Positions 27,946-48,136 of a DNA stretch of 52,517 bases are shown piece after piece. The stretch comes from a virus. Each line of letters starts with the position of its first letter. Positions within the stretch are counted from its first letter, which is position 1. The DNA lies in IMG/VR virus record IMGVR_UViG_3300033064_002377, positions 1 to 52,517 of that record. One strand, 5' to 3'. A program made the position numbers and the translations under genes. Below the pieces are notes generated by a model. That model saw only the letters and a program-made list of their open reading frames with translations. It had not been told where the DNA came from and did no database searches.

Positions 27946-27973
27946 TTGACAAAATGGAAAAACGTGCTATAAT
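27946..27973 (+). promoter_or_regulatory. Near-consensus sigma-70 promoter driving gp55
   Basis: A perfect -35 box TTGACA at 27946-27951 and a perfect -10 box TATAAT at 27968-27973 are spaced by 16 bases, with TG at 27965-27966 forming an extended -10. Transcription would start near 27980, so the true gp55 ATG must lie downstream. The ATG at 28002 with AAAGGA at 27986-27991 fits. The boxes imply use by host RNA polymerase before late gene expression. Confidence 0.8.
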
Positions 27974-28001
27974 AAATAATACTACAAAGGATCTCGCCCT
28001 A

Positions 28002-29870
28002 ATGTCGACCATTACAAGAGCAACACCAAAAACCAACTATCTCAACAACAGAGATATTCTCAAAGAAATTCATCTCAGCAAAAAGAATTATTGTGCGTTT
28101 AGAGATCCAGATCTGGATCATCAATACGACATTATCCTTCCAAGTGTAAGCAAGATCAATCAAAAGAGCACAGCCGAAGCACGTAGAAATCGTGCAGATC
28201 GTATCAAACGTGAAACCGGCGAGATCATTGATCCTAAAAAAATCCCCAACACAGATATTGTTTTTCGAGTCATGACCTGGGAACACATTCCTATGGCACC
28301 CAAAAAAATTACCAAAGCAGCGGCTAAAAAACGAAAATTAGAAGAGCTGCTGGAACTGGACGAGCCTGTGGAAGACGATCCATTAGTAGGATTGATTGAT
28401 GAACCCATGTTAGATCCCACACACATGCGGGTGAACTTCCCCCCATTTTTCCACTATCGCGTGGATGAGAACAAAGTTGCGTTCTTGGTGGGCAAAAGTC
28501 ATTGGCGAGGTGATCTTGAAACTGGTGAGTTTTCAAAAGATCACGGCGAGATGACTCGCACTTTGGCAAAAATGTTTATGAAACTGTGCGAACGCTATGC
28601 CACAAGATCAAACTGGCGCGGCTACTGTGTTGACGAAACCACAGAAGCTCTGACCAAGAGAGGCTGGCTTAAAGAAAATGAAATTACAGAAAATGATACT
28701 ATCTTATCGTACGAGGGCAATGATCTAACATGGTCTAAAATTAAATCTATCTATCGTAGCGAATTTGACGGGCTAATGCATAAACTAACCAATAGAGGAA
28801 TTGATGCACTTATTACACCTGGCCATAAAATTGTTACTGACCGCGGACTTGTTCCTGTAGAATACTTGTTGCAATCGGATAAGATTGTCATGCTCGGTAA
28901 TACAGTTAAAACCAATAATGAACAGAAATATTCCAATTCCATGGTTGAGTTATTGGGATGGATCCTTACCGAAGGAAATTATCAACCTAAAAAACAACTT
29001 GTCACAATTTATCAAAACGAAGGTGTGTATGCCGATCGAATTCGGGCTTGTCTACATGCTTTAAATTTTAAATTTAGCGAATCAACAGGTAAAAAGAATA
29101 TTAGCTTTTTATTAAACAGGCCAGCATCCGACAAGATTTTTAGTATTCTTCCTGTAAAAAATCTATCTATGGAGTTTATTCTTGATCTTACTTCGTCGCA
29201 ACGAGAACTATTAATTGCCACCATGGTTGACGGTGACGGCTGGGGTCGGGCATCTGGATGGAGTTATACGCAAAAAGATAAAACTCATGTTGATTTATTT
29301 CAGGCCCTGTGCGCAATCTCAGGGCACAAGACTAACTCAAATTTGGCAACACACAACTCGTTTGGAAAACAGGTCTTTTATTTCAATATTAATAAATTTG
29401 CAAGCAACACAACCAATGTCACTTCCATTGATTTTCACGGGGGTTCCCGTAACGGAAGAGACTTGATTGGCAGAGGCAAGGCCACGCACCCCAATCAACC
29501 AACCACACACTATAAAGGCCAAGTTTGGTGTCCTGAAACCGAGTATGGGTGTTTTGTTGCCCGCCGTGCCGGCAAGGTTTATCTTACCGGTAATACCTAC
29601 AATGAAGAAATGCGTGGACAAGCATTGTTGCAACTCAGCCAAATTGGACTGCAATTCGACGAATCAAAATCGCAGAATCCGTTCGCTTACTACACGGCTG
29701 CAATAACCAATTCGTTTACTAGAATTTTAAACATTGAAAAGAAGAATCAAAACATCAGAGACGATATCTTGGAAATGAATGGACTGAACCCATCATGGAC
29801 ACGACAGAACTCTGGCAAACACAGCATGGAAGCCATGTCTGGACCGGTTGTAAGTACATTGGATGAGTAA
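28002..29870 (+). CDS. 55: Late transcription sigma factor gp55, interrupted by an in-frame intein
   Basis: The 622-aa precursor splices to about 299 aa. The host protein resumes as TYNEEMRGQALLQLSQIGL, then SQNPFAYYTAAITNSFTRIL and EKKNQNIRDDILEMNGLNPSW, which is the sigma region 2-like part of gp55 that recognises late promoters. The upstream part (KSHWRGDLETGEFSKDHGEM, KLCERYATRSNWRGY) is typical of gp55 in T4-like phages outside the T-even group, and the protein is longer than T4 gp55 (185 aa). The frame opens at 27954 inside the promoter; I chose 28002 for its AAAGGA and its position after the -10 box. The intein (28626-29594) sits between GY and TYNEEM, so an unspliced precursor should lack an intact region 2. 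Confidence 0.88.
   Translation: MSTITRATPKTNYLNNRDILKEIHLSKKNYCAFRDPDLDHQYDIILPSVSKINQKSTAEARRNRADRIKRETGEIIDPKKIPNTDIVFRVMTWEHIPMAPKKITKAAAKKRKLEELLELDEPVEDDPLVGLIDEPMLDPTHMRVNFPPFFHYRVDENKVAFLVGKSHWRGDLETGEFSKDHGEMTRTLAKMFMKLCERYATRSNWRGYCVDETTEALTKRGWLKENEITENDTILSYEGNDLTWSKIKSIYRSEFDGLMHKLTNRGIDALITPGHKIVTDRGLVPVEYLLQSDKIVMLGNTVKTNNEQKYSNSMVELLGWILTEGNYQPKKQLVTIYQNEGVYADRIRACLHALNFKFSESTGKKNISFLLNRPASDKIFSILPVKNLSMEFILDLTSSQRELLIATMVDGDGWGRASGWSYTQKDKTHVDLFQALCAISGHKTNSNLATHNSFGKQVFYFNINKFASNTTNVTSIDFHGGSRNGRDLIGRGKATHPNQPTTHYKGQVWCPETEYGCFVARRAGKVYLTGNTYNEEMRGQALLQLSQIGLQFDESKSQNPFAYYTAAITNSFTRILNIEKKNQNIRDDILEMNGLNPSWTRQNSGKHSMEAMSGPVVSTLDE
28626..29594 (+). mobile_element. Intein with LAGLIDADG endonuclease in gp55 (323 aa)
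   Basis: The intein starts at Cys209 of the precursor (CVDETTEALTKRGWL, block A) and has a TPGHK block B. It carries two LAGLIDADG-type motifs (LLGWILTEGN and LIATMVDGDGWG), then a CFVARRAGKVYLTGN end (blocks F and G) finishing in Asn531, followed by Thr532 as the +1 nucleophile. The penultimate residue is Gly rather than the usual His. All splicing residues except that His are present, so splicing is likely. The endonuclease motifs look intact. Confidence 0.9.
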
Positions 29871-29941: not shown

Positions 29942-31678
29942 ATGACAATAGATCAGTTAAAGTTGTTAAAATATATCACGGTCGGAACGATACAACGTTC
30001 AGAAGTATGGGAATCAGCAGGCCCATACCTGCGGTTAAATTTATCAAATCCGCGGCAGTTGCTGCATCACCTGGAGCACAAGTTGCCCGAAATCCCAGTG
30101 TGCTTTTGTGGTAGTCCGCTGAACTGGCATCCGGACAAAAGACAATATCGAGCATTTTGTTCTAAAAAATGCACTGCAATCGGCAGCGTCAGCAAAGCTA
30201 AACAAACTTCGTTAGAGAAATACGGAACAGAGCACTACAGCCAATCTGCCGAATTCTCTAAACAAGTTAAAAGCACATCTATTGCTAAATTCGGGACGGA
30301 ACACTATAGTCAAACCGAGGAGTTTAAGGCTCGCATTATTTCTACAAATATAAAAAACTTTGGAGTTCCGTATGCTTCACAGAGTAATGAAATTCAACAC
30401 AAAACCGAAGCTACGTGTTTAGCACGGTTTGGTGAAACAAGCCCACTTAAATCTCAAAGAATAAAAGATCAAATTGAAAAAACTAATATAGAGAAATACG
30501 GTAATAGAAATCCATTATTAAACCCCAGTATTGCCGAAGCAGTTAGACAAACTAATTTAGCCAAATATCAAGTTGAGTATCCTTCCCAAAATCCCAATAT
30601 TGCTGCAAAGATAGGGAATACCCGAAAAACAAACTACTATGATCCGGACATACTAGCCAAGTTAAATGATTCAGGTTGGTTAATTGAACAAAATAAAAAC
30701 GTAACCATAAGTGAGGTTGCTAAAATACTAAATGTTAGCCCAAGCAATCTTTGTAAATATTACCATAAACATAATATTAACATTGTTTACCATTCTACTA
30801 CCGAACTAGAACGCAAATTTTTAAGTTATTTTACGTCAAAAAATATTAAGATTGAGATTAAGAATCGTAAACTAATAGCACCGAAGGAAATTGATGTTTT
30901 TTTTCCGGACCATAATCTAGGGATAGAAATTAACGGAGGTTACTGGCATACCGAGCAACACCGCCCGAATAAAAATGACCATCTCAATAAGACCATACTT
31001 GCTGAGCAGCATGGATTTGATCTTTGGCAATTTTGGGATTGGGAATTAAATAATAACTGGGAGTTGATTATCAGTAAGATTGAACATAGATTAGGATTGT
31101 CAACAAAACTGCATGCTAGAAAATTAAAAATTCAGTTAGTAACCAATCAAGAAAAAAATGAATTCTTAGATGCTAATCATGTGCAAGGACCATGTCAGAG
31201 CAAGGTCAATATAGCACTTGTGGATCATGAGAATAAGATATTAATGCTGGGAACTTTTGGCAAAAGTAGATTTAATAAAAACGCCACGTGGGAATTAATA
31301 CGCTTGGCCGCAACACAAAACACCTCTGTTACCGGTGGTGCTTCAAAAATTTTATCTCATTTTGTTAAAAATTATATGAATGGTCAAGAAACGTTGATTA
31401 GCTATTGCCATCGTCGATTTAGCAACGGCAACGTATATAAAAAATTAAATTTTGCACAAACACATATCACCGCGCCCGGTTACGTATATGTGAAACAAGG
31501 ACTACCTGCTGGATCTAGAAATCAATGGCAAAAACACTTGCTAAAAACAAAATTATCCGTTTTTGATGAAACGTTAACTGAAACAGAAAATATGAAAATA
31601 AACGGATATTATCGGGCATGGGATTGTGGACAACTGGTATTTACATTTACTAAAATAGTTCCAAATGATAGAAATTGA
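29942..31678 (+). CDS. Large Vsr/EDxHD-type homing endonuclease with KYG repeats
   Basis: A 578-aa protein. Residues about 50-80 contain a Cys-rich zinc-ribbon-like stretch (CFCG...FCSKKC). About 85-235 has six or so repeats of the form T(S/N)xxK(Y/F)G....SQ..E, as in DNA-binding regions of phage homing enzymes. About 250-275 is a helix-turn-helix (ISEVAKILNVSPSNLCKYY). About 300-385 has the Vsr-like nuclease core (EIDVFFPDHNLGIEINGGYWH, HLNKTILAEQHGFDLWQFWDWEL). The C-terminal 190 residues resemble the extra domain of Hef-like endonucleases of T-even relatives. It lies between gp55 and gp47. AAAGG precedes the ATG. Lower GC and many AAT/AAA codons set it apart from its neighbours. Confidence 0.78.
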   Translation: MTIDQLKLLKYITVGTIQRSEVWESAGPYLRLNLSNPRQLLHHLEHKLPEIPVCFCGSPLNWHPDKRQYRAFCSKKCTAIGSVSKAKQTSLEKYGTEHYSQSAEFSKQVKSTSIAKFGTEHYSQTEEFKARIISTNIKNFGVPYASQSNEIQHKTEATCLARFGETSPLKSQRIKDQIEKTNIEKYGNRNPLLNPSIAEAVRQTNLAKYQVEYPSQNPNIAAKIGNTRKTNYYDPDILAKLNDSGWLIEQNKNVTISEVAKILNVSPSNLCKYYHKHNINIVYHSTTELERKFLSYFTSKNIKIEIKNRKLIAPKEIDVFFPDHNLGIEINGGYWHTEQHRPNKNDHLNKTILAEQHGFDLWQFWDWELNNNWELIISKIEHRLGLSTKLHARKLKIQLVTNQEKNEFLDANHVQGPCQSKVNIALVDHENKILMLGTFGKSRFNKNATWELIRLAATQNTSVTGGASKILSHFVKNYMNGQETLISYCHRRFSNGNVYKKLNFAQTHITAPGYVYVKQGLPAGSRNQWQKHLLKTKLSVFDETLTETENMKINGYYRAWDCGQLVFTFTKIVPNDRN

Positions 31679-31741: not shown

Positions 31742-32758
31742 ATGACTAATTTATTCCGCAAGGCCGCATTGATGACAGATATCCATCTTGGACTCAAATC
31801 TAATTCAACGTTACATAACGAAGACTGCTTGAATTTTGTAAAGTGGGCCACTGCCAAAGCCAAGGCAGAAGGTTGTGAAACATGTATGTTTCTTGGTGAC
31901 TGGCATAACAATAGAGCCAGTCTCAACATTGTCACACTGAACTACAGCCTCCGGGCACTGGAGCACATGAATGCAAATTTTGACCGTGTTTATTTTATTC
32001 CCGGTAATCATGATCTCTACTATCGCGACAAAAGAGATATACAAAGTGTTGAGTGGGCCCGCCATCTCCCCAACGTTGAGATATGCAATGATTGGTTCAG
32101 CAGCGGAGATGTCGTGATTGCTCCTTGGCTGGTGGGTGACGATTTTAAACGTATCCCCAAGCTGAAAGGCAAGTACATGTTTGGGCACTTTGAATTACCT
32201 GGGTATCTCATGAATGCCATGGTAGAAATGCCAGACCATGGCGAGGTGCGTAGAGAAGATTTCACAAACTTTGAACATGTGTTTACCGGGCATTTTCACA
32301 AACGTCAGACCAAGAAAAACATCACATACATTGGCAATTGTTTCCCGCACAACTACGCCGATGCTGGTGACGACGACCGCGGGCTTGCTATCCTAGAGTG
32401 GGGCAAGGATCCTGTGTATCATGCTTGGCCGGATCAACCCAGGTATCGAGTGCTAGGGCTAGCCAACATCATTGACAATGCAGCCACTTTGCTTGCACCC
32501 AGGATGCATGTTCGTGTAAACTTAGACATTGAAATTTCATACGAAGAAGCTACCTTTATCAAAGAAACATATATCCGAGATTATGCATTGAGAGAGATGT
32601 CTTTGATACCCAACAAGAATAGTTCAGTGGATACAGATATGGCACCGGGTGAGATCAAATTTGAATCAGTAGATCAAATTGTCACCGATCAAATTACCAA
32701 TATTGAATCTGAATTCTACGATAACAAACTACTACTGAAAATCTATCAGAATCTGTAA
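31742..32758 (+). CDS. 47: Recombination endonuclease subunit gp47 (Mre11/SbcD-like)
   Basis: A 338-aa metallophosphoesterase with the expected motif series: DIHLG (13-17), GDWHNN (52-57), GNHD (88-91), GHFE (148-151) and GHFH (183-186). These residues bind the two metal ions of Mre11-type nucleases. In T4, gp47 pairs with the ATPase gp46 to trim DNA ends for recombination and to help degrade host DNA. Length equals that of T4 gp47 (339 aa). An internal ATG at 31772 would remove the first beta strand, so I keep 31742. An HNH endonuclease separates it from gp46. Confidence 0.93.
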   Translation: MTNLFRKAALMTDIHLGLKSNSTLHNEDCLNFVKWATAKAKAEGCETCMFLGDWHNNRASLNIVTLNYSLRALEHMNANFDRVYFIPGNHDLYYRDKRDIQSVEWARHLPNVEICNDWFSSGDVVIAPWLVGDDFKRIPKLKGKYMFGHFELPGYLMNAMVEMPDHGEVRREDFTNFEHVFTGHFHKRQTKKNITYIGNCFPHNYADAGDDDRGLAILEWGKDPVYHAWPDQPRYRVLGLANIIDNAATLLAPRMHVRVNLDIEISYEEATFIKETYIRDYALREMSLIPNKNSSVDTDMAPGEIKFESVDQIVTDQITNIESEFYDNKLLLKIYQNL

Positions 32759-32802: not shown

Positions 32803-33639
32803 ATGAATAAGTTTATTGAAAAATATATAAAAACTAAACGGTTTACTGACAAAGTAAATCGCAGTTTAACACCAGATGAAATACAAGCGTTAGAAAAAGT
32901 TATCAAAAAATACGGAGAGACTGCGTTTATTCGAAATAAAAGTATCCTTGACGATAGAGTCATTACTGATCGAATCCCAACAATGATAAAGCATAATGTG
33001 TTAACTATTGTTGAAAATTTAGAAAAAGTAAAAGATGTTCGCAGAAATTCACTCGAGCATTGGCAACTGTTTTACGGTAGTCACGCAAACGATCTTTACG
33101 CTGAGAGAACCAGGAAGTCTCGGCAGACAGAAAAAAATTTTGTTGAACGACACGGTGAAATCAACGGAAAAAAATTGTGGGCTGTTTTTAGTGACAAAAA
33201 ATCTAAAAAATCATCTTATACTAACTCAAAGGAATGGTATATTGATCGTTACGGCGAAGAGGCTGGGTATAAAAAATGGCAAGAAGTTGTTTACAAACGC
33301 ATCTATAAAAAATGGACGTTAGAAGGCCTTGTGGAGAAATATGGAGAATTTTTAGGAAACGAAAAATACAATAAGATGCTTAAGGAAAGAGAAAAATTCC
33401 CTGGTTATGCCAGGAAAGTTCACGGACTTAGTCAAAAAACTTATGAAGAAAATATTGATATTATTAATCCTAATAGATTTAAACGAACGCTATGTGGTGT
33501 TGAGGGCGGATATCAACTAGATCATATTATAAGTGTCCGAGAATGTTTTGAACAGAATATTCCTGTAGAAGAGGCATCAAGGGTAGAGAATTTAAGGATG
33601 TTGCCGTGGAAGGAAAATTTAATGAGGCAATATGATTAA
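32803..33639 (+). CDS. HNH-type homing endonuclease between gp47 and gp46
   Basis: A 278-aa basic protein. The C-terminus has the HNH-like core YQLDHIISVRECFEQNIPVEE followed by ENLRMLPWKEN, a form common in free-standing phage endonucleases. The earlier parts have repeats of the type (V/I)(E/D)(R/K)(Y/H)GE..G.KKW (about residues 110-190), a DNA-contact module seen in mobile nucleases. Its last eight bases overlap the gp46 ATG, so it is wedged tightly into the gp47-gp46 unit. AT-rich codon use matches the other mobile genes rather than gp47. Confidence 0.78.
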   Translation: MNKFIEKYIKTKRFTDKVNRSLTPDEIQALEKVIKKYGETAFIRNKSILDDRVITDRIPTMIKHNVLTIVENLEKVKDVRRNSLEHWQLFYGSHANDLYAERTRKSRQTEKNFVERHGEINGKKLWAVFSDKKSKKSSYTNSKEWYIDRYGEEAGYKKWQEVVYKRIYKKWTLEGLVEKYGEFLGNEKYNKMLKEREKFPGYARKVHGLSQKTYEENIDIINPNRFKRTLCGVEGGYQLDHIISVRECFEQNIPVEEASRVENLRMLPWKENLMRQYD

Positions 33640-33901
33640 AATAAACAATTTATCAGTTCGTAATTTTATGTCGGTTGGCGCGGTAACACAAGGTATCAAC
33701 TTTGATCGATCTGATCTCACCCTGGTACTTGGGGAAAATCTAGACATGGGTGGAGATGGATCTCGTAACGGAACTGGCAAGTGTTGTTGTACAAATACCA
33801 TTATAAAAGTTCGTAATACCGTAACAGGAGAAATATCCGAACTAACTGTGGGAGAACTATATCATGGCATCAAATCTGAGCAAACTAGAGATAGTGAATA
33901 A
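33632..33901 (+). CDS. 46: gp46 N-terminal piece fused to the N-half of a split intein
   Basis: An 89-aa product. Residues 1-50 are the start of gp46, the SbcC/Rad50-like ATPase (IKINNLSVRNFMSVG, then the P-loop start GSRNGTGK). Residues 51-89 (CCCTNTIIKVRNTVTGEISEL in part, then TVGELYHGIKSEQ) have the look of intein block A and its following strands. A TAA ends the frame. The P-loop GxxxxGK(T/S) is completed only by the Thr-Thr that begins the extein in the next ORF, so this piece has no complete ATP site. GAGG lies four bases before the ATG. Confidence 0.85.
   Translation: MIKINNLSVRNFMSVGAVTQGINFDRSDLTLVLGENLDMGGDGSRNGTGKCCCTNTIIKVRNTVTGEISELTVGELYHGIKSEQTRDSE
33782..33898 (+). mobile_element. 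Split intein N-half (about 39 aa)
   Basis: Begins with Cys51 directly after the Lys of the Walker A motif. Only block A and part of the next region are present; block B (CADDHI) is on the other ORF. The break is much closer to the N-terminus than in ordinary split inteins (about 100 aa), like the atypically split inteins known from environmental T4-like phages. Three Cys in a row leave a one- or two-residue uncertainty in the junction, but GK|TT restores a normal P-loop. Confidence 0.75.
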
Positions 33902-33937
33902 AGTTTTAGACCAACGGATTAAAAATCTTGAAGGTAA

Positions 33938-34054
33938 AAAACAAGAATTTATGTTCGAGATCAAGATTATGAAGTATTGGTAATTTGGGAAAGTGATTTT
34001 AAGAAAAATAAAGAGGAAGTAGTTAAAAAATGCATTCAATTTCTGACACAGTAA
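33938..34054 (+). pseudogene. C-terminal remnant of a Vsr-like homing endonuclease
   Basis: In the frame of the N-half but after several stop codons, the DNA encodes YVRDQDYEVLVIWESDFKKN then EEVVKKCIQFL and a stop. The DxGYxVLVIWExD pattern is the characteristic end of Vsr/EDxHD-family homing nucleases. Upstream, a different frame (ATG at 33864) reads DQRIKNLEGKKQEF, which could be preceding sequence offset by a frameshift. The catalytic part is missing. The remnant lies between the two intein halves, where fractured genes carry a free-standing endonuclease. Confidence 0.65.
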
Positions 34055-34401
34055 CTAGAAAATTTGTCGACGTCGTTGATCTTGACAATTTAGAAATAGA
34101 AACCGATACCGGGTGGCATCCTGTTTCTAAGATATTTAAAACAATACCATACCAAGTCTGGTCCGTTCAAACTCAATCGGGACTGACATTAAGGTGTGCA
34201 GACGACCATATTGTATTTGACCACAACTTGACTGAAATCTATGTAAAGAATCTCATACCAAATGTTTCAGTAATTCAAACCAATTCTGGACCAGAATTGG
34301 TTACTTCTGTAGTCCGGCATCCGCACATGGAAAACATGTACGATATTTCGGTGGATTCGGCCAATCACCGATATTTTACCAATGGAATTTTATCACATAA
34401 T
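34030..34401 (+). mobile_element. Split intein C-half (124 aa)
   Basis: Contains IETDTGWHPV, a block B with CADDHIVF (the His retained, the usual Thr replaced by Ala), MYDISVDSANHRYFTNG (block F) and ILSHN (block G) with the penultimate His and terminal Asn intact, followed by Thr as the +1 residue. No LAGLIDADG or HNH is inside. All residues needed for C-terminal cleavage are present, supporting active trans-splicing. Confidence 0.8.
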
Positions 34402-36015
34402 ACCACTATCATCAATGCATTGAGTTATGCATTGTATGGCCAAGCACTGTCAAATATTCGCAAAGACAATCTCGTAAACAAGACCAATTCTAAACACATG
34501 CTGGTGAGTCTTGACTTTGGGGTTGGCGGACAAAACTATCGAATTGAACGTGGCCGTAAACCCAACGTGCTCAAGTTCTATGTCAACGATGAACATCAGG
34601 CATCACAAGATGAAGCACAAGGCGACTCAAGAGAAACACAAGAAGCCATAGAGCGGGTGTTGGGCATGAGCCATGACATGTTCCAACACATTGTTGCTCT
34701 TAACACATACACTGCACCGTTCTTGAGTTTGAAAGCCAACGAACAACGTACCATCATTGAGCAATTGCTAGGCATTACCCTGTTGAGTGAACGTGCTGAT
34801 CGTATTAAAGAACTAAACAAAGCAACCAAAGACTCTATTCAGTCTGAAGAATTACGTATTCGTGCTGTTCAAGAAGCTAACAAACGCATCGAAGAACAAA
34901 TACAAAGTTTGGAAAAACGCCGTACACTATGGATTCGCAAACAAAGTGAAGATGTTGCTGCATTAACTCAAGGTATTGGTGATCTTGAACACATTGACAT
35001 CAACACCGAAGTACAATCACATAGAGATCTTGAAGCATACCATGTTCGTAAGAAATCGTTAGATGATGCAAATCGATGGATCAAACAAATCAATGCAGAC
35101 GATGCAAAATTACAAAAGCAACGAGATCAAATTCAACGAGATCTTGGGCAAATTGCATCGCACAAATGCTTTGCTTGCGGTACTGAAATCCACGACAACA
35201 GTCTTGACACTGTGAAAGTACAGCGTGAGAAAAATCTTCAAGAATTGGCTTTGCAATTGTTGACCAATGACACCCAAAGATTTGAACACCTGGCGACCCT
35301 AACAAGTCTTGGAACCCTGGGTGCTGTTCCTGTGGTGTTTTACGATAGTCTGGAACAAGCATTGAATCACAAAAACACTGTGGATACTTTACACAAGGAT
35401 CTTGCTGCAAGATCAGCAGATACTGATCCATATGCTGAACAAATTGTAGAAATGCAGCATCAAGCATTACAGGTGGTCAGCTACGATACTCTGAACGAAT
35501 TTACCAGAGTACAGGAGCATCAAGAATTCTTGCTTAAATTACTCACCAGCAAAGATTCGTTTGTGCGTAAGAAGATCATTGATCAAAATTTGAGTTATCT
35601 CAACAGTCGCCTCACACACTATCTGGACCGTATTGGTTTGCCACATACCGTGAAGTTTCAAAATGATCTCACGGTGAGTATTGAAGAACTGGGTCGTGAA
35701 CTGGATTTTGACAACTTATCTCGTGGTGAACGCAATCGACTGATCTTGAGCATGAGTTGGGCGTTCAGAGATGTGTGGGAAAGTCTATACCAACCCATTA
35801 ACATCTTGTTCATTGATGAGATGATTGATTCAGGCTTAGACACACAGGGTGTGGAGAATGCATTGGGCTTGTTGAAGAAGATGAGCCGAGAACGCCACAA
35901 GAGTATATGGCTGGTCAGCCACAGAGATGAACTAACCAGTAGGGTTGAGAACATTCTCAGAGTTGTTAAATCAGGAGGATTTACAGAATATAACACTGAT
36001 GTGGACACTGCATGA
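34030..36015 (+). CDS. 46: gp46 C-terminal piece fused to the C-half of a split intein
   Basis: A 661-aa product. Residues 1-124 are intein; residue 125 onward is gp46. The extein starts TTIINALSYALYGQA, completing Walker A. It has long coiled-coil segments with a zinc-hook CFAC at about 380-383, an ABC signature LSRGERNR near 563, and Walker B INILFIDEMIDSGLD near 590-602. After trans-splicing the protein would be about 587 aa, close to T4 gp46 (560). gp46 drives the gp47 nuclease in recombination-dependent replication. AGAGGAAG 11 bases upstream gives this ORF its own ribosome-binding site. Its start overlaps the endonuclease remnant. Confidence 0.9.
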   Translation: MHSISDTVTRKFVDVVDLDNLEIETDTGWHPVSKIFKTIPYQVWSVQTQSGLTLRCADDHIVFDHNLTEIYVKNLIPNVSVIQTNSGPELVTSVVRHPHMENMYDISVDSANHRYFTNGILSHNTTIINALSYALYGQALSNIRKDNLVNKTNSKHMLVSLDFGVGGQNYRIERGRKPNVLKFYVNDEHQASQDEAQGDSRETQEAIERVLGMSHDMFQHIVALNTYTAPFLSLKANEQRTIIEQLLGITLLSERADRIKELNKATKDSIQSEELRIRAVQEANKRIEEQIQSLEKRRTLWIRKQSEDVAALTQGIGDLEHIDINTEVQSHRDLEAYHVRKKSLDDANRWIKQINADDAKLQKQRDQIQRDLGQIASHKCFACGTEIHDNSLDTVKVQREKNLQELALQLLTNDTQRFEHLATLTSLGTLGAVPVVFYDSLEQALNHKNTVDTLHKDLAARSADTDPYAEQIVEMQHQALQVVSYDTLNEFTRVQEHQEFLLKLLTSKDSFVRKKIIDQNLSYLNSRLTHYLDRIGLPHTVKFQNDLTVSIEELGRELDFDNLSRGERNRLILSMSWAFRDVWESLYQPINILFIDEMIDSGLDTQGVENALGLLKKMSRERHKSIWLVSHRDELTSRVENILRVVKSGGFTEYNTDVDTA

Positions 36016-36115: not shown

Positions 36116-36544
36116 ATGACATGGTTATATCAAAACACCCCAGTGGAGACATTGCCAGACTCATGTGCGGGATTCGTTTACTTGATCACAAATAATCTCA
36201 CTGGACGCAAATACATAGGCAAAAAACTGGCAAAGTTCTCAAAAACCACATACAGAACAGTCACACAAAAAAACGGCATCAAGAAGAAAAAAAAGATACG
36301 AAGCAAAACGGATTCAGATTGGCGAGAGTACTGGTCAAGTTCAGATGAACTTAAAAAAGACATTTTGTCTTTTGGACAAGATAATTTTACAAGAGAAATA
36401 TTATTTTATTGTAAAAGCAAATCAGAATGTACCTATATAGAAGCAAGAACCCAGTTTGAAAGAAAAGTATTAGAATCAGACGACTATTATAACGGGCAGA
36501 TAGTTTGCCGTATACATGGTAGTCATATTAAAAACAAAATTTAA
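36116..36544 (+). CDS. GIY-YIG nuclease
   Basis: A 142-aa protein with GFVYLITNNLTGRKYIGKK (GIY-YIG as GFVY...KYIG), a basic insert rich in lysine (NGIKKKKKIRSKTDSDWREYW), and ENFTREILFYC-like and EARTQFERKVL segments. The glutamate in YIEA is a likely catalytic residue. This compact form recurs in T4-like phages of cyanobacteria and other aquatic hosts and may be either a mobile nuclease or a resident repair enzyme. It follows gp46 after 100 bases and ends before the hairpin-rich non-coding region. No strong ribosome-binding site was seen. Confidence 0.78.
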   Translation: MTWLYQNTPVETLPDSCAGFVYLITNNLTGRKYIGKKLAKFSKTTYRTVTQKNGIKKKKKIRSKTDSDWREYWSSSDELKKDILSFGQDNFTREILFYCKSKSECTYIEARTQFERKVLESDDYYNGQIVCRIHGSHIKNKI

Positions 36545-40011: not shown

Positions 40012-43000
40012 ATGGCAGAACCAAACAAAGGCACCGGGTGGAAAAAATATTTCAAAGTCGCAGATTTATCTGGACAGATGAGCCCAATTGCGGGCGGCAG
40101 AGACCAAGGATTACCTGGCTATCCCAAAAACGACGGACGTCGAAGCAATCAAGCAGATACTGATTTTAGTTTTAGAAACTATGCCAGCCGATTACCAGAA
40201 GTTTATTCTGGCCATCCTAATCGTATTGAACGTTATAATCAGTACGAAAACATGGACGCTGATTCTGAAGTTAATGCATGTTTAGACATCATTTCAGAAT
40301 TCTCTACACAACTGAACGAACAAAACGACACACCGTTTGACATCACATACAATGATGATCCTACAGATCACGAAATTGAAATCATCCGTAAACAGATGCA
40401 GCAATGGGTCAAGCTAAACAAGCTGGATCAACGCATATTCAAACTGTTTCGCAACACAATCAAATACGGTGATCAAGTGTTTGTTCGTGACCCAGAAACA
40501 TTCGAAATGTACTGGGTGGACATGAGCAAAGTGGTGCGTGTGATTGTGAATGAAAACGAAGGCAAGCGGCCAGAACAATATATCATTCGAGACATCAACC
40601 CTAACTTTCAGAGTTTGACGGTGGCAGCTAAAACCACTACTGACTTTATGGTCAACCCAAGTTCAGGTGGCGCTGGTGGTATTGGCGGCAGTATGCAAGG
40701 CGGCGGCTACACAGCACCCAGTTCGGCTATGAGTGGAGCCAGCAGATTTAATCGTGCTGTGAATGAAACTTGTATTGACGCCAAACATGTGGTTCATTTG
40801 AGCTTGAACGAAGGCCTGGATACATTCTGGCCATTTGGCAAAAGTATCTTAGAAAACATTTTCAAAGTATTCAAACAAAAAGAACTTCTTGAAGACGCTA
40901 TGTTGATATATCGTGTACAACGTGCGCCTGAGCGGCGTGTGTTCAAAATTGATGTAGGTAACATGCCCAGCCATATGGCCATGGCTTTTGTGGAACGTGT
41001 GAAGAATGAAATGCATCAACGTCGTATTCCCACATATGGCGGCGGCGGTCAAAATATTATGGATTCAAGCTATAATCCTTTGTGTCTAGATCTCAGCACT
41101 CGTATTCCGCTATTAGATGGAAGAACGCTGACATTGAGTGAGATCATCTCTGAGTTTGATCAAGGCAAACAGAACTGGGTATACAGTTGCGATCCTGACA
41201 CTGGTGAAGTCATGCCTGGTGTGATTGACTGGGCCGGCGTCACAAGACAAAATGCTGAAACAATCAAATTGACATTTGACAATGGTGAAACATTGATATG
41301 TACCCCGGATCACAAAATACCTGTGTTTGGCCGAGGCTTTGTGGCTGCAAAAGACCTCACTGTACACGACAGTTTGATTGCATTTAATCGTCAAGAGGCC
41401 AAGATATCCAGCCGCAGTAGTGAGTATCAGCAGGTATGGGATCATAAATCTCAGTCTTGGGTGTGGACACATCGTATGGTAGGCGAATTCTTTAGGAAAC
41501 AAAAAAAGCATCAAGAGTTCACTTATTTGGAAGAAAATATCAAAAAAGTCAAACAGGTTATACACCACAAAGATTCTAATAGATTCAACAATGATCCTCG
41601 TAATCTTTCTTACATGAATCGTGAAGATCATATCTTGTATCATGCTGCTCAGAAAAAACAGTTCTGGGAAGACATGACACCAGAATATTGTGATGCTATG
41701 GCTGGCAAAATATCACACACGTTAAAAGCACGATGGGAAAATCTAGACGAACAACAGAGATTGATATCATTGTATCGCATAAGACAAGCACAAGTTCGAT
41801 CAGTGTGGATGCGACAAAATGATCCGGATGTGGCAGCACGTTATAGAAAGAACGCAGGGGAGTCACGTCGTCGATACATCAATGCCAATCCTGAATTTAA
41901 ACAAAAATTGTTGAAGAATTTAAAAAACAGAAAAAAATTCAGCAATCAGCCACTGGTGTTGACTTTTAAAATGCTGCAAATTGTTGCAGATACTGTGAAA
42001 ACACAGAGCAAGAACAAACACTCAGTGATGAAACTGTGTGCCGAAAACCCTACATTGATGAATTTGTTGCGTGATCACAATAGCATGAACAACCTGGGTG
42101 TTACACAAAACAAAATTGATATTGGCAGTTTTGGTTACAGCAAAATGAATAGATTGCTTGAAAAATTTGGCTATAAAAACTGGAAGCATTTTGTCAAGTC
42201 GCTAGACAACTTCAATCACAAGATTGTGAGTATTGAAACAGTGGAACCCAGGGACGTAGGAACTATCACAGTAGATGGCCTTGAAAAATGGCATGCTCAT
42301 CATACTTTTGCTATTGAAAGTGGAATTTTTGTCAAGAACTCAATCAATGAGGATTTCTTCTTTCCAGTAGGTGTAGATGGTCGTGGTAGCTCAGTAGATG
42401 TATTACCAGGTGGACAAAATCTAGGTGAAATTGACGATTTAAAGTATTTTAACAACAAAATGGCTCGTGGTCTGCGTGTGCCTTCCAGCTATTTGCCCAC
42501 AGCGCCAGATGATTCAGATCGTACCATGCAAGATGGTAAAGTGGGTACAGCACTGATTCAAGAGTATAGATTCAATCAATATTGCGAACGACTGCAAGCA
42601 TTGATCATGCAAAAGCTAGATGATGAATTCAAGATGTTTCTACGTTGGAGAGGATTTAATATTGATGCTGGACTTTTTCAAATCAAGTTTAATCCACCTC
42701 AAAACTTTGCAAGTTACCGTCAAGCTGAACTAGACACTTCGCGTATCACAGCGTTTACCAGTTTAGAAGCACTGCCTTACATGAGCAAAAGATTCTTGTT
42801 AGAGCGTTTCTTGGGATTAACACAAGACGAGATACAGCAGAATTCCAAACTTTGGAAAGAAGAACGGGATAAACCAGAACTACAATCAGCACAAGGTCAA
42901 GATCTACGCTCGGTAGGTATTACTCCTGCTGGTTTAGAAAGCGATGTAGAAATGGGACAAGACATGGCAAATATCGCACCAGCAGGTCAAGAAGGTGTGC

Positions 43001-43086
43001 CAGGTGCAGCACCTGGTGGTACAATTGGAACTACTCCAGCAGCACAGCCTCCCGGAGCAGGTGCACCAATTCCAGGTGCTGCATAA
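40012..43086 (+). CDS. 20: Portal vertex protein gp20, interrupted by an in-frame intein
   Basis: The 1,024-aa precursor splices to about 605 aa. Extein signatures of T4-like portals include LPEVYSGHPNRIERYNQYE near the start, MDADSEVNACLDIISEF, RNTIKYGDQVFVRDP, RVQRAPERRVFKIDVGNMP, and after the intein SINEDFFFPVGVDGRGSSV, DVLPGGQNLGEIDDL and KMARGLRVPSSYL. gp20 forms the dodecameric DNA channel at one capsid vertex. The C-terminus is proline/glycine-rich. The intein interrupts between NPL and SINEDF, in the middle of a conserved stretch; the unspliced protein should not assemble. T4 gp20 is 524 aa. Confidence 0.93.
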   Translation: MAEPNKGTGWKKYFKVADLSGQMSPIAGGRDQGLPGYPKNDGRRSNQADTDFSFRNYASRLPEVYSGHPNRIERYNQYENMDADSEVNACLDIISEFSTQLNEQNDTPFDITYNDDPTDHEIEIIRKQMQQWVKLNKLDQRIFKLFRNTIKYGDQVFVRDPETFEMYWVDMSKVVRVIVNENEGKRPEQYIIRDINPNFQSLTVAAKTTTDFMVNPSSGGAGGIGGSMQGGGYTAPSSAMSGASRFNRAVNETCIDAKHVVHLSLNEGLDTFWPFGKSILENIFKVFKQKELLEDAMLIYRVQRAPERRVFKIDVGNMPSHMAMAFVERVKNEMHQRRIPTYGGGGQNIMDSSYNPLCLDLSTRIPLLDGRTLTLSEIISEFDQGKQNWVYSCDPDTGEVMPGVIDWAGVTRQNAETIKLTFDNGETLICTPDHKIPVFGRGFVAAKDLTVHDSLIAFNRQEAKISSRSSEYQQVWDHKSQSWVWTHRMVGEFFRKQKKHQEFTYLEENIKKVKQVIHHKDSNRFNNDPRNLSYMNREDHILYHAAQKKQFWEDMTPEYCDAMAGKISHTLKARWENLDEQQRLISLYRIRQAQVRSVWMRQNDPDVAARYRKNAGESRRRYINANPEFKQKLLKNLKNRKKFSNQPLVLTFKMLQIVADTVKTQSKNKHSVMKLCAENPTLMNLLRDHNSMNNLGVTQNKIDIGSFGYSKMNRLLEKFGYKNWKHFVKSLDNFNHKIVSIETVEPRDVGTITVDGLEKWHAHHTFAIESGIFVKNSINEDFFFPVGVDGRGSSVDVLPGGQNLGEIDDLKYFNNKMARGLRVPSSYLPTAPDDSDRTMQDGKVGTALIQEYRFNQYCERLQALIMQKLDDEFKMFLRWRGFNIDAGLFQIKFNPPQNFASYRQAELDTSRITAFTSLEALPYMSKRFLLERFLGLTQDEIQQNSKLWKEERDKPELQSAQGQDLRSVGITPAGLESDVEMGQDMANIAPAGQEGVPGAAPGGTIGTTPAAQPPGAGAPIPGAA
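41083..42339 (+). mobile_element. Intein with HNH endonuclease in the portal gene (419 aa)
   Basis: Starts at Cys358 (CLDLSTRIPLLDGRTLTLSE, block A) and has a CTPDHK block B. An HNH domain (IHHKDSNRFNNDPRNLSYMNREDHILYH) occurs near residues 510-540. A basic helical region follows, with NUMOD-like repeats. Blocks F/G are VDGLEKWHAHHTFAIESG and IFVKN ending at Asn776, with Ser777 as the +1 residue. The penultimate residue is Lys, not His. No LAGLIDADG is seen, so it differs in nuclease type from the gp55 intein. Confidence 0.9.
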
Positions 43087-47271: not shown

Positions 47272-47296
47272 TCAGAGATTGGTATTTTACCAAATC

Positions 47297-47322
47297 AAAA
47301 AAGCACCTTTGGGTGCTTTTTT
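47297..47322 (+). terminator. Rho-independent terminator after gp23
   Basis: AAAAAA-GCACC-TTTG-GGTGC-TTTTTT: a 5-bp GC stem extended by A-T pairs with a TTTG loop and T-run, 25 bases after the capsid stop. Nearly identical to the one at 48387-48410. Confidence 0.85.
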
Positions 47323-47389
47323 GTTGACTAAAAAATTTAAAAATGTTATAGTTATTAGGAGATTTAGTTGTATTAAACTAAATAACAAT

Positions 47390-48136
47390 ATGAAACCCTA
47401 TACCTATCTAATCAAGCATCGTCCGTCCGGTAAAGTTTACTATGGATATCGTTCTGCGAATCGAGTAGACCCAGAACAAGATCTATGGAAACAATACTTT
47501 ACCAGCAGTCCAAAAGTTCAACAACTAATTGAAGAAACTGGAGTAGACAGTTTTGATGTAGAAGTGCGGCGAGTATTTGAAACTAAAGAACAAGCGAGCA
47601 ACTGGGAAACAAGAGTTTTACGCCGTTGTCGAGTATTAGAAGATGATCGTTGGATCAATCAAAATATTGCAGGATACATTGTGCCTACAGAAGAAAGCCG
47701 AAAAAAGATCAGCGACTATCACAAAGACAAGCCAAAGACTGAAGAGCACAAACAAAAAATTAGAGCATCTCAAAAAGGTAGCAAGCGCCCTTGGTCAGTT
47801 AGTAATCTTCCAAAAGACACTAAGGGCAAACATAATGGCATGTACGGCAAGTCTCATTCTGAAGAAACAAAAGCAAAGATTGGCGAACTAATGAGCAAAC
47901 GCATTAAGGGAGATAATAATCCTATGCGTAAAGTGGAGTGGACTGACGAGCGACGAAAAGCAATGGGAGATCGTGCTCGAGGTACCAAATGGACCCAAGA
48001 AGCAATTGCTGCTCGATCAGAAAAACTGCGAGGTCAAACAAGACCCAAACTACACTGTGAGCACTGCAAGCGAGACATAGCAGTGGGATGGTTTCACAGA
48101 CACGGTGACAATTGTAAACAAAAGGAAACAAAATGA
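47390..48136 (+). CDS. GIY-YIG homing endonuclease with NUMOD3 repeats
   Basis: A 248-aa product from the ATG at 47390; the frame opens at 47279 inside the terminator, which cannot be the real start. The N-terminus YTYLIKHRPSGKVYYGYRS is a GIY-YIG variant (YTYL...VYYGY). Several NUMOD3-like motifs follow (KPKTEEHKQKIRASQKG, GKSHSEETKAKIGELMSK, RGTKWTQEAIAARSEKLRG), each ending in a basic turn. A C-terminal zinc-knuckle-like CEHCKRDI...HGDNCK completes a layout common in phage mobile endonucleases. It sits between gp23 and the fibre gene and overlaps the next small ORF by ATGA. Confidence 0.82.
   Translation: MKPYTYLIKHRPSGKVYYGYRSANRVDPEQDLWKQYFTSSPKVQQLIEETGVDSFDVEVRRVFETKEQASNWETRVLRRCRVLEDDRWINQNIAGYIVPTEESRKKISDYHKDKPKTEEHKQKIRASQKGSKRPWSVSNLPKDTKGKHNGMYGKSHSEETKAKIGELMSKRIKGDNNPMRKVEWTDERRKAMGDRARGTKWTQEAIAARSEKLRGQTRPKLHCEHCKRDIAVGWFHRHGDNCKQKETK

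What the first reader, a model, noticed from the sequence alone, without database searches (positions are those of the whole stretch)
33632..36015. Fractured gp46: Walker A loop cut by an atypically split intein
gp46 is encoded on two ORFs. The first ends GSRNGTGK followed by an intein-like segment of about 39 aa; the second begins with 124 aa of intein ending SHN and resumes TTIINALSYALYG. Splicing in trans would rebuild GxxxxGKT exactly. Each half has its own ATG and ribosome-binding site. The break lies far upstream of block B, which is the pattern of the rare 'short N-half' split inteins reported from environmental T4-like phages; I know of no such case in gp46. Active end-processing recombinase would then depend on trans-splicing.
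Basis: partly seen in the sequence, partly recalled or inferred. Interest (0 to 1): 0.92.

Follow-up and report, generated by a model that had tools for sequence, protein, structure and literature searches.

The report
Phage recombination gene split by mobile intein
In this uncultured phage, the gene for the DNA-end-processing ATPase gp46 is cut in two inside its ATP-binding loop by a naturally split self-splicing element that must rejoin the two protein pieces; close relatives still carry the DNA-cutting 'homing' gene that spreads the element, while here only its two ends remain, so the locus shows a mobile element decaying into a permanently split gene.

Summary
gp46 lies on two ORFs (33632-33901, 34030-36015). 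The first ends GSRNGTGK plus a 39-aa intein N-part; the second starts with a 124-aa C-part ending SHN, then TTIINALSYALYG. About 70 intein-free relatives read GTGKTTI without a break. The same two-ORF gp46 occurs in about 20 other distinct viral contigs. It is neither a sequencing error nor unique. It is an atypically split class 1 intein, broken after the first helix (S2 site), nearest by fold to VidaL.

In 15 relatives an intact ~365-aa EDxHD/Vsr-like endonuclease ORF fills the gap and overlaps both intein halves. In the window a 919-bp frameshifting deletion leaves only its ends, as shown by L084, whose C-part is 97% identical. Cassette DNA is ~96% identical to L084 but the flanking gp46 only ~81% (dS 0.12 versus 1.35), so the intein moved recently as a unit. 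This is the known 'fractured gene' arrangement with a short-N split intein in a host gene, gp46, that I found in no held paper. Trans-splicing is strongly inferred, not shown. Verdict: real, a new member of a known kind.

The parts
33632..33781 (+). gp46 N-extein, 50 aa, ending in the first part of the Walker A loop GSRNGTGK
   Evidence: PHROG 77 SbcC-like/gp46 match E 2e-5; continuous with TTIINAL in intein-free relatives
33782..33901 (+). intein N-part (IntN), 39 aa CCCTNTIIKVRN...GELYHGIKSEQTRDSE plus stop TAA 33899-33901
   Evidence: same stop in L084
33850..33855 (+). Shine-Dalgarno-like GGGAGA inside the IntN codons for Gly-Glu, 8 nt before the endonuclease start ATG 33864
   Evidence: same placement in nearly all relatives
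33864..33983 (+). 5' remnant of the homing endonuclease gene (conserved ATG; about 30 native codons, then out of frame to a stop; 39 codons in all)
33953..33956 (.). junction of a 919-bp frameshifting deletion relative to L084
   Evidence: junction sequence in no other viral contig
33955..34053 (+). 3' remnant of the homing endonuclease gene, ...RDQDYEVLVIWESDFKKNKEEVVKKCIQFLTQ*, overlapping the IntC start
34012..34019 (+). Shine-Dalgarno-like AGAGGAAG before the IntC ATG
34030..34401 (+). intein C-part (IntC), 124 aa, ending ILSHN
   Evidence: HINT fold model pLDDT 87.5, VidaL best Foldseek hit
34402..36015 (+). gp46 C-extein, 537 aa, starting TTIINALSYALYG, plus stop
   Evidence: AAA_23; PHROG 77 E 3e-79
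31742..32758 (+). gp47 (SbcD/Mre11-like partner subunit)
   Evidence: PHROG 100 E 5e-59; Metallophos

Best explanation
This is a fractured gp46 gene: an atypically split (S2-site, short-N) class 1 intein inserted at the Walker A GK|T junction of a Rad50/SbcC-like ATPase. The two polypeptides are translated separately, the 39-aa IntN and 124-aa IntC assemble into one HINT fold, and trans-splicing through Cys1, Asn124 and Thr+1 joins the 50-aa and 537-aa exteins into a 587-aa gp46 with GTGKTT restored. The gap originally held an EDxHD/Vsr-like homing endonuclease ORF, translated from a ribosome-binding site inside IntN and ending inside IntC, which drove spread of the whole IntN-endonuclease-IntC cassette into intein-free gp46 alleles. 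In this phage a 919-bp deletion has destroyed the endonuclease, leaving a split gene kept by the need for active gp46. Shown: anatomy, homology, conservation, recent movement of the cassette, endonuclease remnant. Inferred: trans-splicing, endonuclease activity, cleavage target.
For: Exact anatomy. Intein-free alleles at 90% identity read straight through. Same split with conserved halves in about 20 other distinct contigs. All intein blocks present and collinear with contiguous TerL mini-inteins. IntC profile hits VidaL (E 8e-9), gp41-1 and the Cat intein; model pLDDT 87.5 with Foldseek top hit VidaL at 1.1 A. IntC is under purifying selection (dN/dS 0.12, binomial p 3e-4). C-extein dN/dS is 0.045 and gp46 is single-copy in fractured contigs of 92-289 kb. 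Endonuclease intact in relatives and remnant here. Identity block 33800-34400 at about 96% versus 81% in the flanking gp46; nested among intein-free alleles on the tree. No Rfam intron.
Against: No splicing has been observed. IntN on its own shows no purifying selection between the window and L084 (7 nonsynonymous, 2 synonymous changes; short, and overlapping the endonuclease start). The 919-bp deletion is seen in one contig only. The phage genome is incomplete, so a second gp46 elsewhere in this phage cannot be excluded. Endonuclease assignment to the Vsr/EDxHD fold rests on motif and a weak PDB match (E about 0.1).
Confidence: 0.9

Rival explanations
1. The intein parts no longer splice and the two gp46 pieces work as a non-covalent complex, as reported for split NrdA of phage Aeh1 and split gp43 of phage 25.
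For: Split phage enzymes that work without splicing are known (PMC2988022).
Against: The break lies inside the P-loop, between Lys and Thr that both bind nucleotide; the catalytic intein residues are conserved across the gp46 family members aligned; IntC is under purifying selection.
Confidence: 0.05
2. gp46 is a broken gene in this phage or in this contig; no active protein is made.
For: The homing endonuclease here is clearly broken; the contig is a fragment.
Against: Both gp46 exteins are full length and the C-extein is strongly constrained (dN/dS 0.045); relatives with the same split have gp46 as the only copy found in contigs up to 289 kb.
Confidence: 0.03
3. Sequencing or assembly error in a continuous intein-containing ORF.
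For: Single uncultured contig; the deletion junction occurs in no other contig.
Against: The stop and the two-ORF layout are identical in L084 and the layout is conserved in about 20 other contigs, most from other samples. The deletion ends share only about 2 bases, so a repeat collapse is unlikely; a second loss of different extent exists in L086.
Confidence: 0.02

Closest known systems
Fractured genes (Dassa et al. 2009; known to me by citation and memory of the abstract, paper not held)
   Same: Conserved phage DNA-metabolism enzyme broken in two by a split intein with a free-standing Vsr-related endonuclease gene in between
   Different: Host gene gp46 (no gp46 case in any held paper; the original list could not be read); endonuclease deleted in the window; split at the N-proximal S2 site
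AceL TerL / GOS TerL atypically split inteins (S2 site; PMC13014065)
   Same: Break after the first alpha-helix, short IntN, long IntC; insertion in a phage ATPase; same IntC family found in TerL here
   Different: gp46 instead of TerL; IntN 39 aa against the reported 15-37 aa
VidaL split intein (PDB 6vgv)
   Same: Closest solved structure by sequence profile (E 8e-9) and fold (1.1 A, 29% identity)
   Different: VidaL is split earlier (S1, 16-aa IntN; PMC13014065)
Delftia phage PhiW-14 TerL (isolate)
   Same: Two-ORF TerL with same intein family and short IntN, no endonuclease in the gap
   Different: Host gene TerL; N-half not annotated in the record
Salicola phage SCTP-2 gp46 intein
   Same: Intein at the same GK|T site of gp46
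   Different: Contiguous, large, Ala at position 1, different intein subfamily

Membership tests
Split intein, class 1 | Nucleophile at residue 1, block B histidine, block F, block G HN, nucleophile at +1 | tested here: met
   Cys1; CADDH; YDI...HRY; SHN; Thr+1, conserved across family
Split intein, class 1 | HINT fold | tested here: met
   AlphaFold2 IntC pLDDT 87.5; 51 PDB matches at E<=0.001, the top ones inteins
Split intein, class 1 | Trans-splicing activity | not testable with these tools
   needs co-expression
Atypically split (S2) intein | Break after the first helix, IntN about 15-37 aa, IntC carries block B onward | tested here: met
   IntN 39 aa ends just after GELYHGIK; IntC holds the rest; collinear with contiguous TerL mini-inteins; definition from PMC13014065. 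IntN is 2 aa longer than the reported range
Fractured gene | Enzyme gene broken by split intein with separate endonuclease ORF between halves | tested here: met
   Met in 15 relatives; in the window only the two ends of the endonuclease remain
Fractured gene | Host gene whole in related phages | tested here: met
   about 70 intein-free gp46 relatives
EDxHD/Vsr-like homing endonuclease (relatives' gap ORF) | Catalytic motif E...D...E/xGxxWH...D...VxWE | tested here: met
   near-invariant D288, E297, W303, H304, D330, E349 in alignment A3; Vsr is the top but weak PDB match, E 0.1
EDxHD/Vsr-like homing endonuclease (window) | Complete enzyme ORF in the window | tested here: not met
   919-bp frameshifting deletion
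gp46 / SbcC-Rad50 | Walker A rebuilt on joining, AAA_23 domain, gp47 neighbour | tested here: met
Group I or II intron | Intron RNA at the break | tested here: not met
   no Rfam match in window; fold of the gap no better than shuffles, z -0.01

The most novel reading that the evidence does not exclude
After losing its endonuclease the split intein is kept as a timing switch: gp46/gp47 stays inactive until enough of both halves accumulates and splices, delaying DNA-end resection during infection. The element sits in the very enzyme that is thought to process the breaks its endonuclease makes, so splicing and homing could be coupled.
Probability: 0.08. Interest if true: 0.78.

Novelty: new member of a known kind. 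Interest (0 to 1): 0.52.

Why it matters
It adds gp46, apparently a new host gene, to the naturally split inteins. It also gives a matched pair, L084 with the endonuclease and the window without it, that maps one step in how a mobile element becomes a permanently split gene. A second, separate loss (L086) supports the same route. It offers a family of natural split inteins with IntN under 40 aa for protein labelling. It also puts recombination-driven phage replication behind an obligatory protein-splicing step, which can be tested directly.

Tried and rejected
RNA intron at the break: no Rfam match, no unusual fold. Second gp46 copy in related large contigs: none. Another contig with the same deletion junction: none. 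Close DNA relatives among isolated phages: none; the isolates listed carry this intein family in TerL, not in gp46 (278 further records were not listed). Literature on a gp46 split intein in the held library: none; Dassa et al. 2009 is not held. First structure model with 4 sequences was poor and was replaced by one with 27. Promoter and terminator scan found no more sites than shuffles. A scan of bacterial and archaeal genomes gave only 5 distant matches in metagenome-assembled genomes, which did not help with the host.

Full report
Observation. The window encodes gp46 on two ORFs at the stated coordinates. ORF 33632-33901 has 50 aa of gp46 ending GSRNGTGK and 39 aa of intein. ORF 34030-36015 has 124 aa of intein ending SHN and 537 aa of gp46 starting TTIINALSYALYG. 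About 70 related gp46 genes without an intein, the nearest 88-90% identical, read GSRNGTGKTTIINALSYALYG continuously, so joining the halves restores the Walker A loop exactly.

The split is real and shared. A profile of the C-part found 65 viral contigs. About 20 distinct gp46 loci besides the window have the same layout: a short IntN ending in a stop and a separate IntC starting with ATG (once GTG). The nearest, L084, has a 97% identical IntC and the same stop codon. An assembly error at 33899 is therefore very unlikely.

Intein anatomy. Cys1, the block B CADDH, the block F aspartate and histidine, the block G HN and Thr+1 are all present and conserved. IntN and IntC together align end to end with contiguous 159-179 aa mini-inteins in TerL of phages LIMEstone1 and VAP7; the break falls in the variable loop after the first helix, the S2 site of AceL and GOS TerL (PMC13014065). 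The IntC model (27 sequences, pLDDT 87.5) matches solved inteins, with VidaL best (E 2e-7, rmsd 1.1 A); VidaL is also the best sequence-profile match (E 8e-9).

In 15 fractured gp46 relatives the gap holds an intact ORF of about 365 aa. Its start codon lies inside IntN, after a GGAG-type ribosome-binding site that is at the same time the Gly-Glu codons of IntN, and its last codons contain the IntC start. Its C-terminal domain has the D, E/xGxxWH, D and VxWE pattern of the Vsr-related EDxHD endonucleases; the PDB match to Vsr is weak (E 0.1). In L114 and L119 the C-terminal domain instead looks like GIY-YIG, judged by eye.

Loss in the window. Against L084, a 919-bp frameshifting deletion removes the middle of the endonuclease and leaves about 30 codons at its start and 32 at its end. 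The junction occurs in no other viral contig, so this deletion rests on one contig. L086 shows a separate, in-frame loss that leaves 25 codons, and L097 has a frameshifted endonuclease. In all three the split persists.

Movement. Between the window and L084 the cassette DNA is about 96% identical from 33800 to 34400, and the flanking gp46 about 81%. dS is 0.12 in IntC and 1.35 in the C-extein. The C-terminal border of the identity block coincides with the splice junction to within a few bases; the N-terminal border lies 17 nt inside the intein. On the extein tree the pair sits inside a starred group of otherwise intein-free alleles. Other pairs also have lower dS in the cassette than in the extein. 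This fits recent spread of IntN-endonuclease-IntC as one unit. It does not show which phage was donor or recipient.

Function. IntC is under purifying selection (4 nonsynonymous, 9 synonymous differences, dN/dS 0.115, p 3e-4) and the gp46 C-extein is strongly constrained (0.045). gp46 is single-copy in five fractured contigs of 92-289 kb. Together with a break between the P-loop Lys and Thr, this makes trans-splicing the most likely route to active gp46. It has not been observed.

Comparison with what is known. The layout matches the fractured genes of Dassa et al. 2009, which I know by citation and memory of the abstract because the paper is not held. The split type matches AceL/GOS TerL. No held paper reports a split intein in gp46. 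In isolated phages the listed matches of this intein family are in TerL. Delftia phage PhiW-14 has a two-ORF TerL of this kind whose N-half is unannotated.

Verdict. Real and correctly read at the protein level; a new member of a known kind in an apparently new host gene, made more interesting by the endonuclease remnant and the matched pair with L084. Interest 0.52.

Noticed in passing
L128 1475-4513 and 1806-2783: A TerL with an intein of this family is one continuous frame across an out-of-frame endonuclease gene: 0 stops in about 327 codons, where synonymous shuffles give a mean of 19 (minimum 10) and the other endonucleases compared have 16 or more in that frame. It looks like a cis-intein overprinted on the endonuclease gene. 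One contig only.
   Followed up: partly
L232 about 1977-2520 (Delftia phage PhiW-14, NC_013697.1): Unannotated N-half of a fractured TerL ending in a short IntN; the record annotates only the C-half, which begins with IntC.
   Followed up: partly
L114 2214-3266 and L119 1787-2839: Endonucleases between gp46-like intein halves share the N-terminal part but carry a GIY-YIG-like C-terminal domain, suggesting catalytic domain exchange (L114, by eye).
   Followed up: no
L086 4940-5030: Split gp46 intein with no endonuclease: only an in-frame remnant MLRWNNTLEKIVKTKVKQCIQFLTR* is left (sequence).
   Followed up: partly
window 27954-29870: gp55-like late sigma factor carries an intein-like insert, about 28617-29592, absent from L084.
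   Followed up: partly
window 40012-43086: Portal protein gp20 contains an intein with an HNH domain.
   Followed up: no
window 32803-33639: Putative free-standing endonuclease, HNH-like by eye, between gp47 and gp46, overlapping the gp46 start by 8 nt; absent from L084.
   Followed up: no
window 29942-31678, 36116-36544, 47279-48136 and 1249-1899: Further endonuclease-like genes (PHROG 3339 homing endonuclease, SegE GIY-YIG, and two GIY-YIG-like by eye), so the window is rich in mobile endonucleases.
   Followed up: no
L052, L053, L055, L056, L073-L076: Intein-free gp46 genes about 106 aa longer than the others within the matched region; nature of the extra segment not examined.
   Followed up: no
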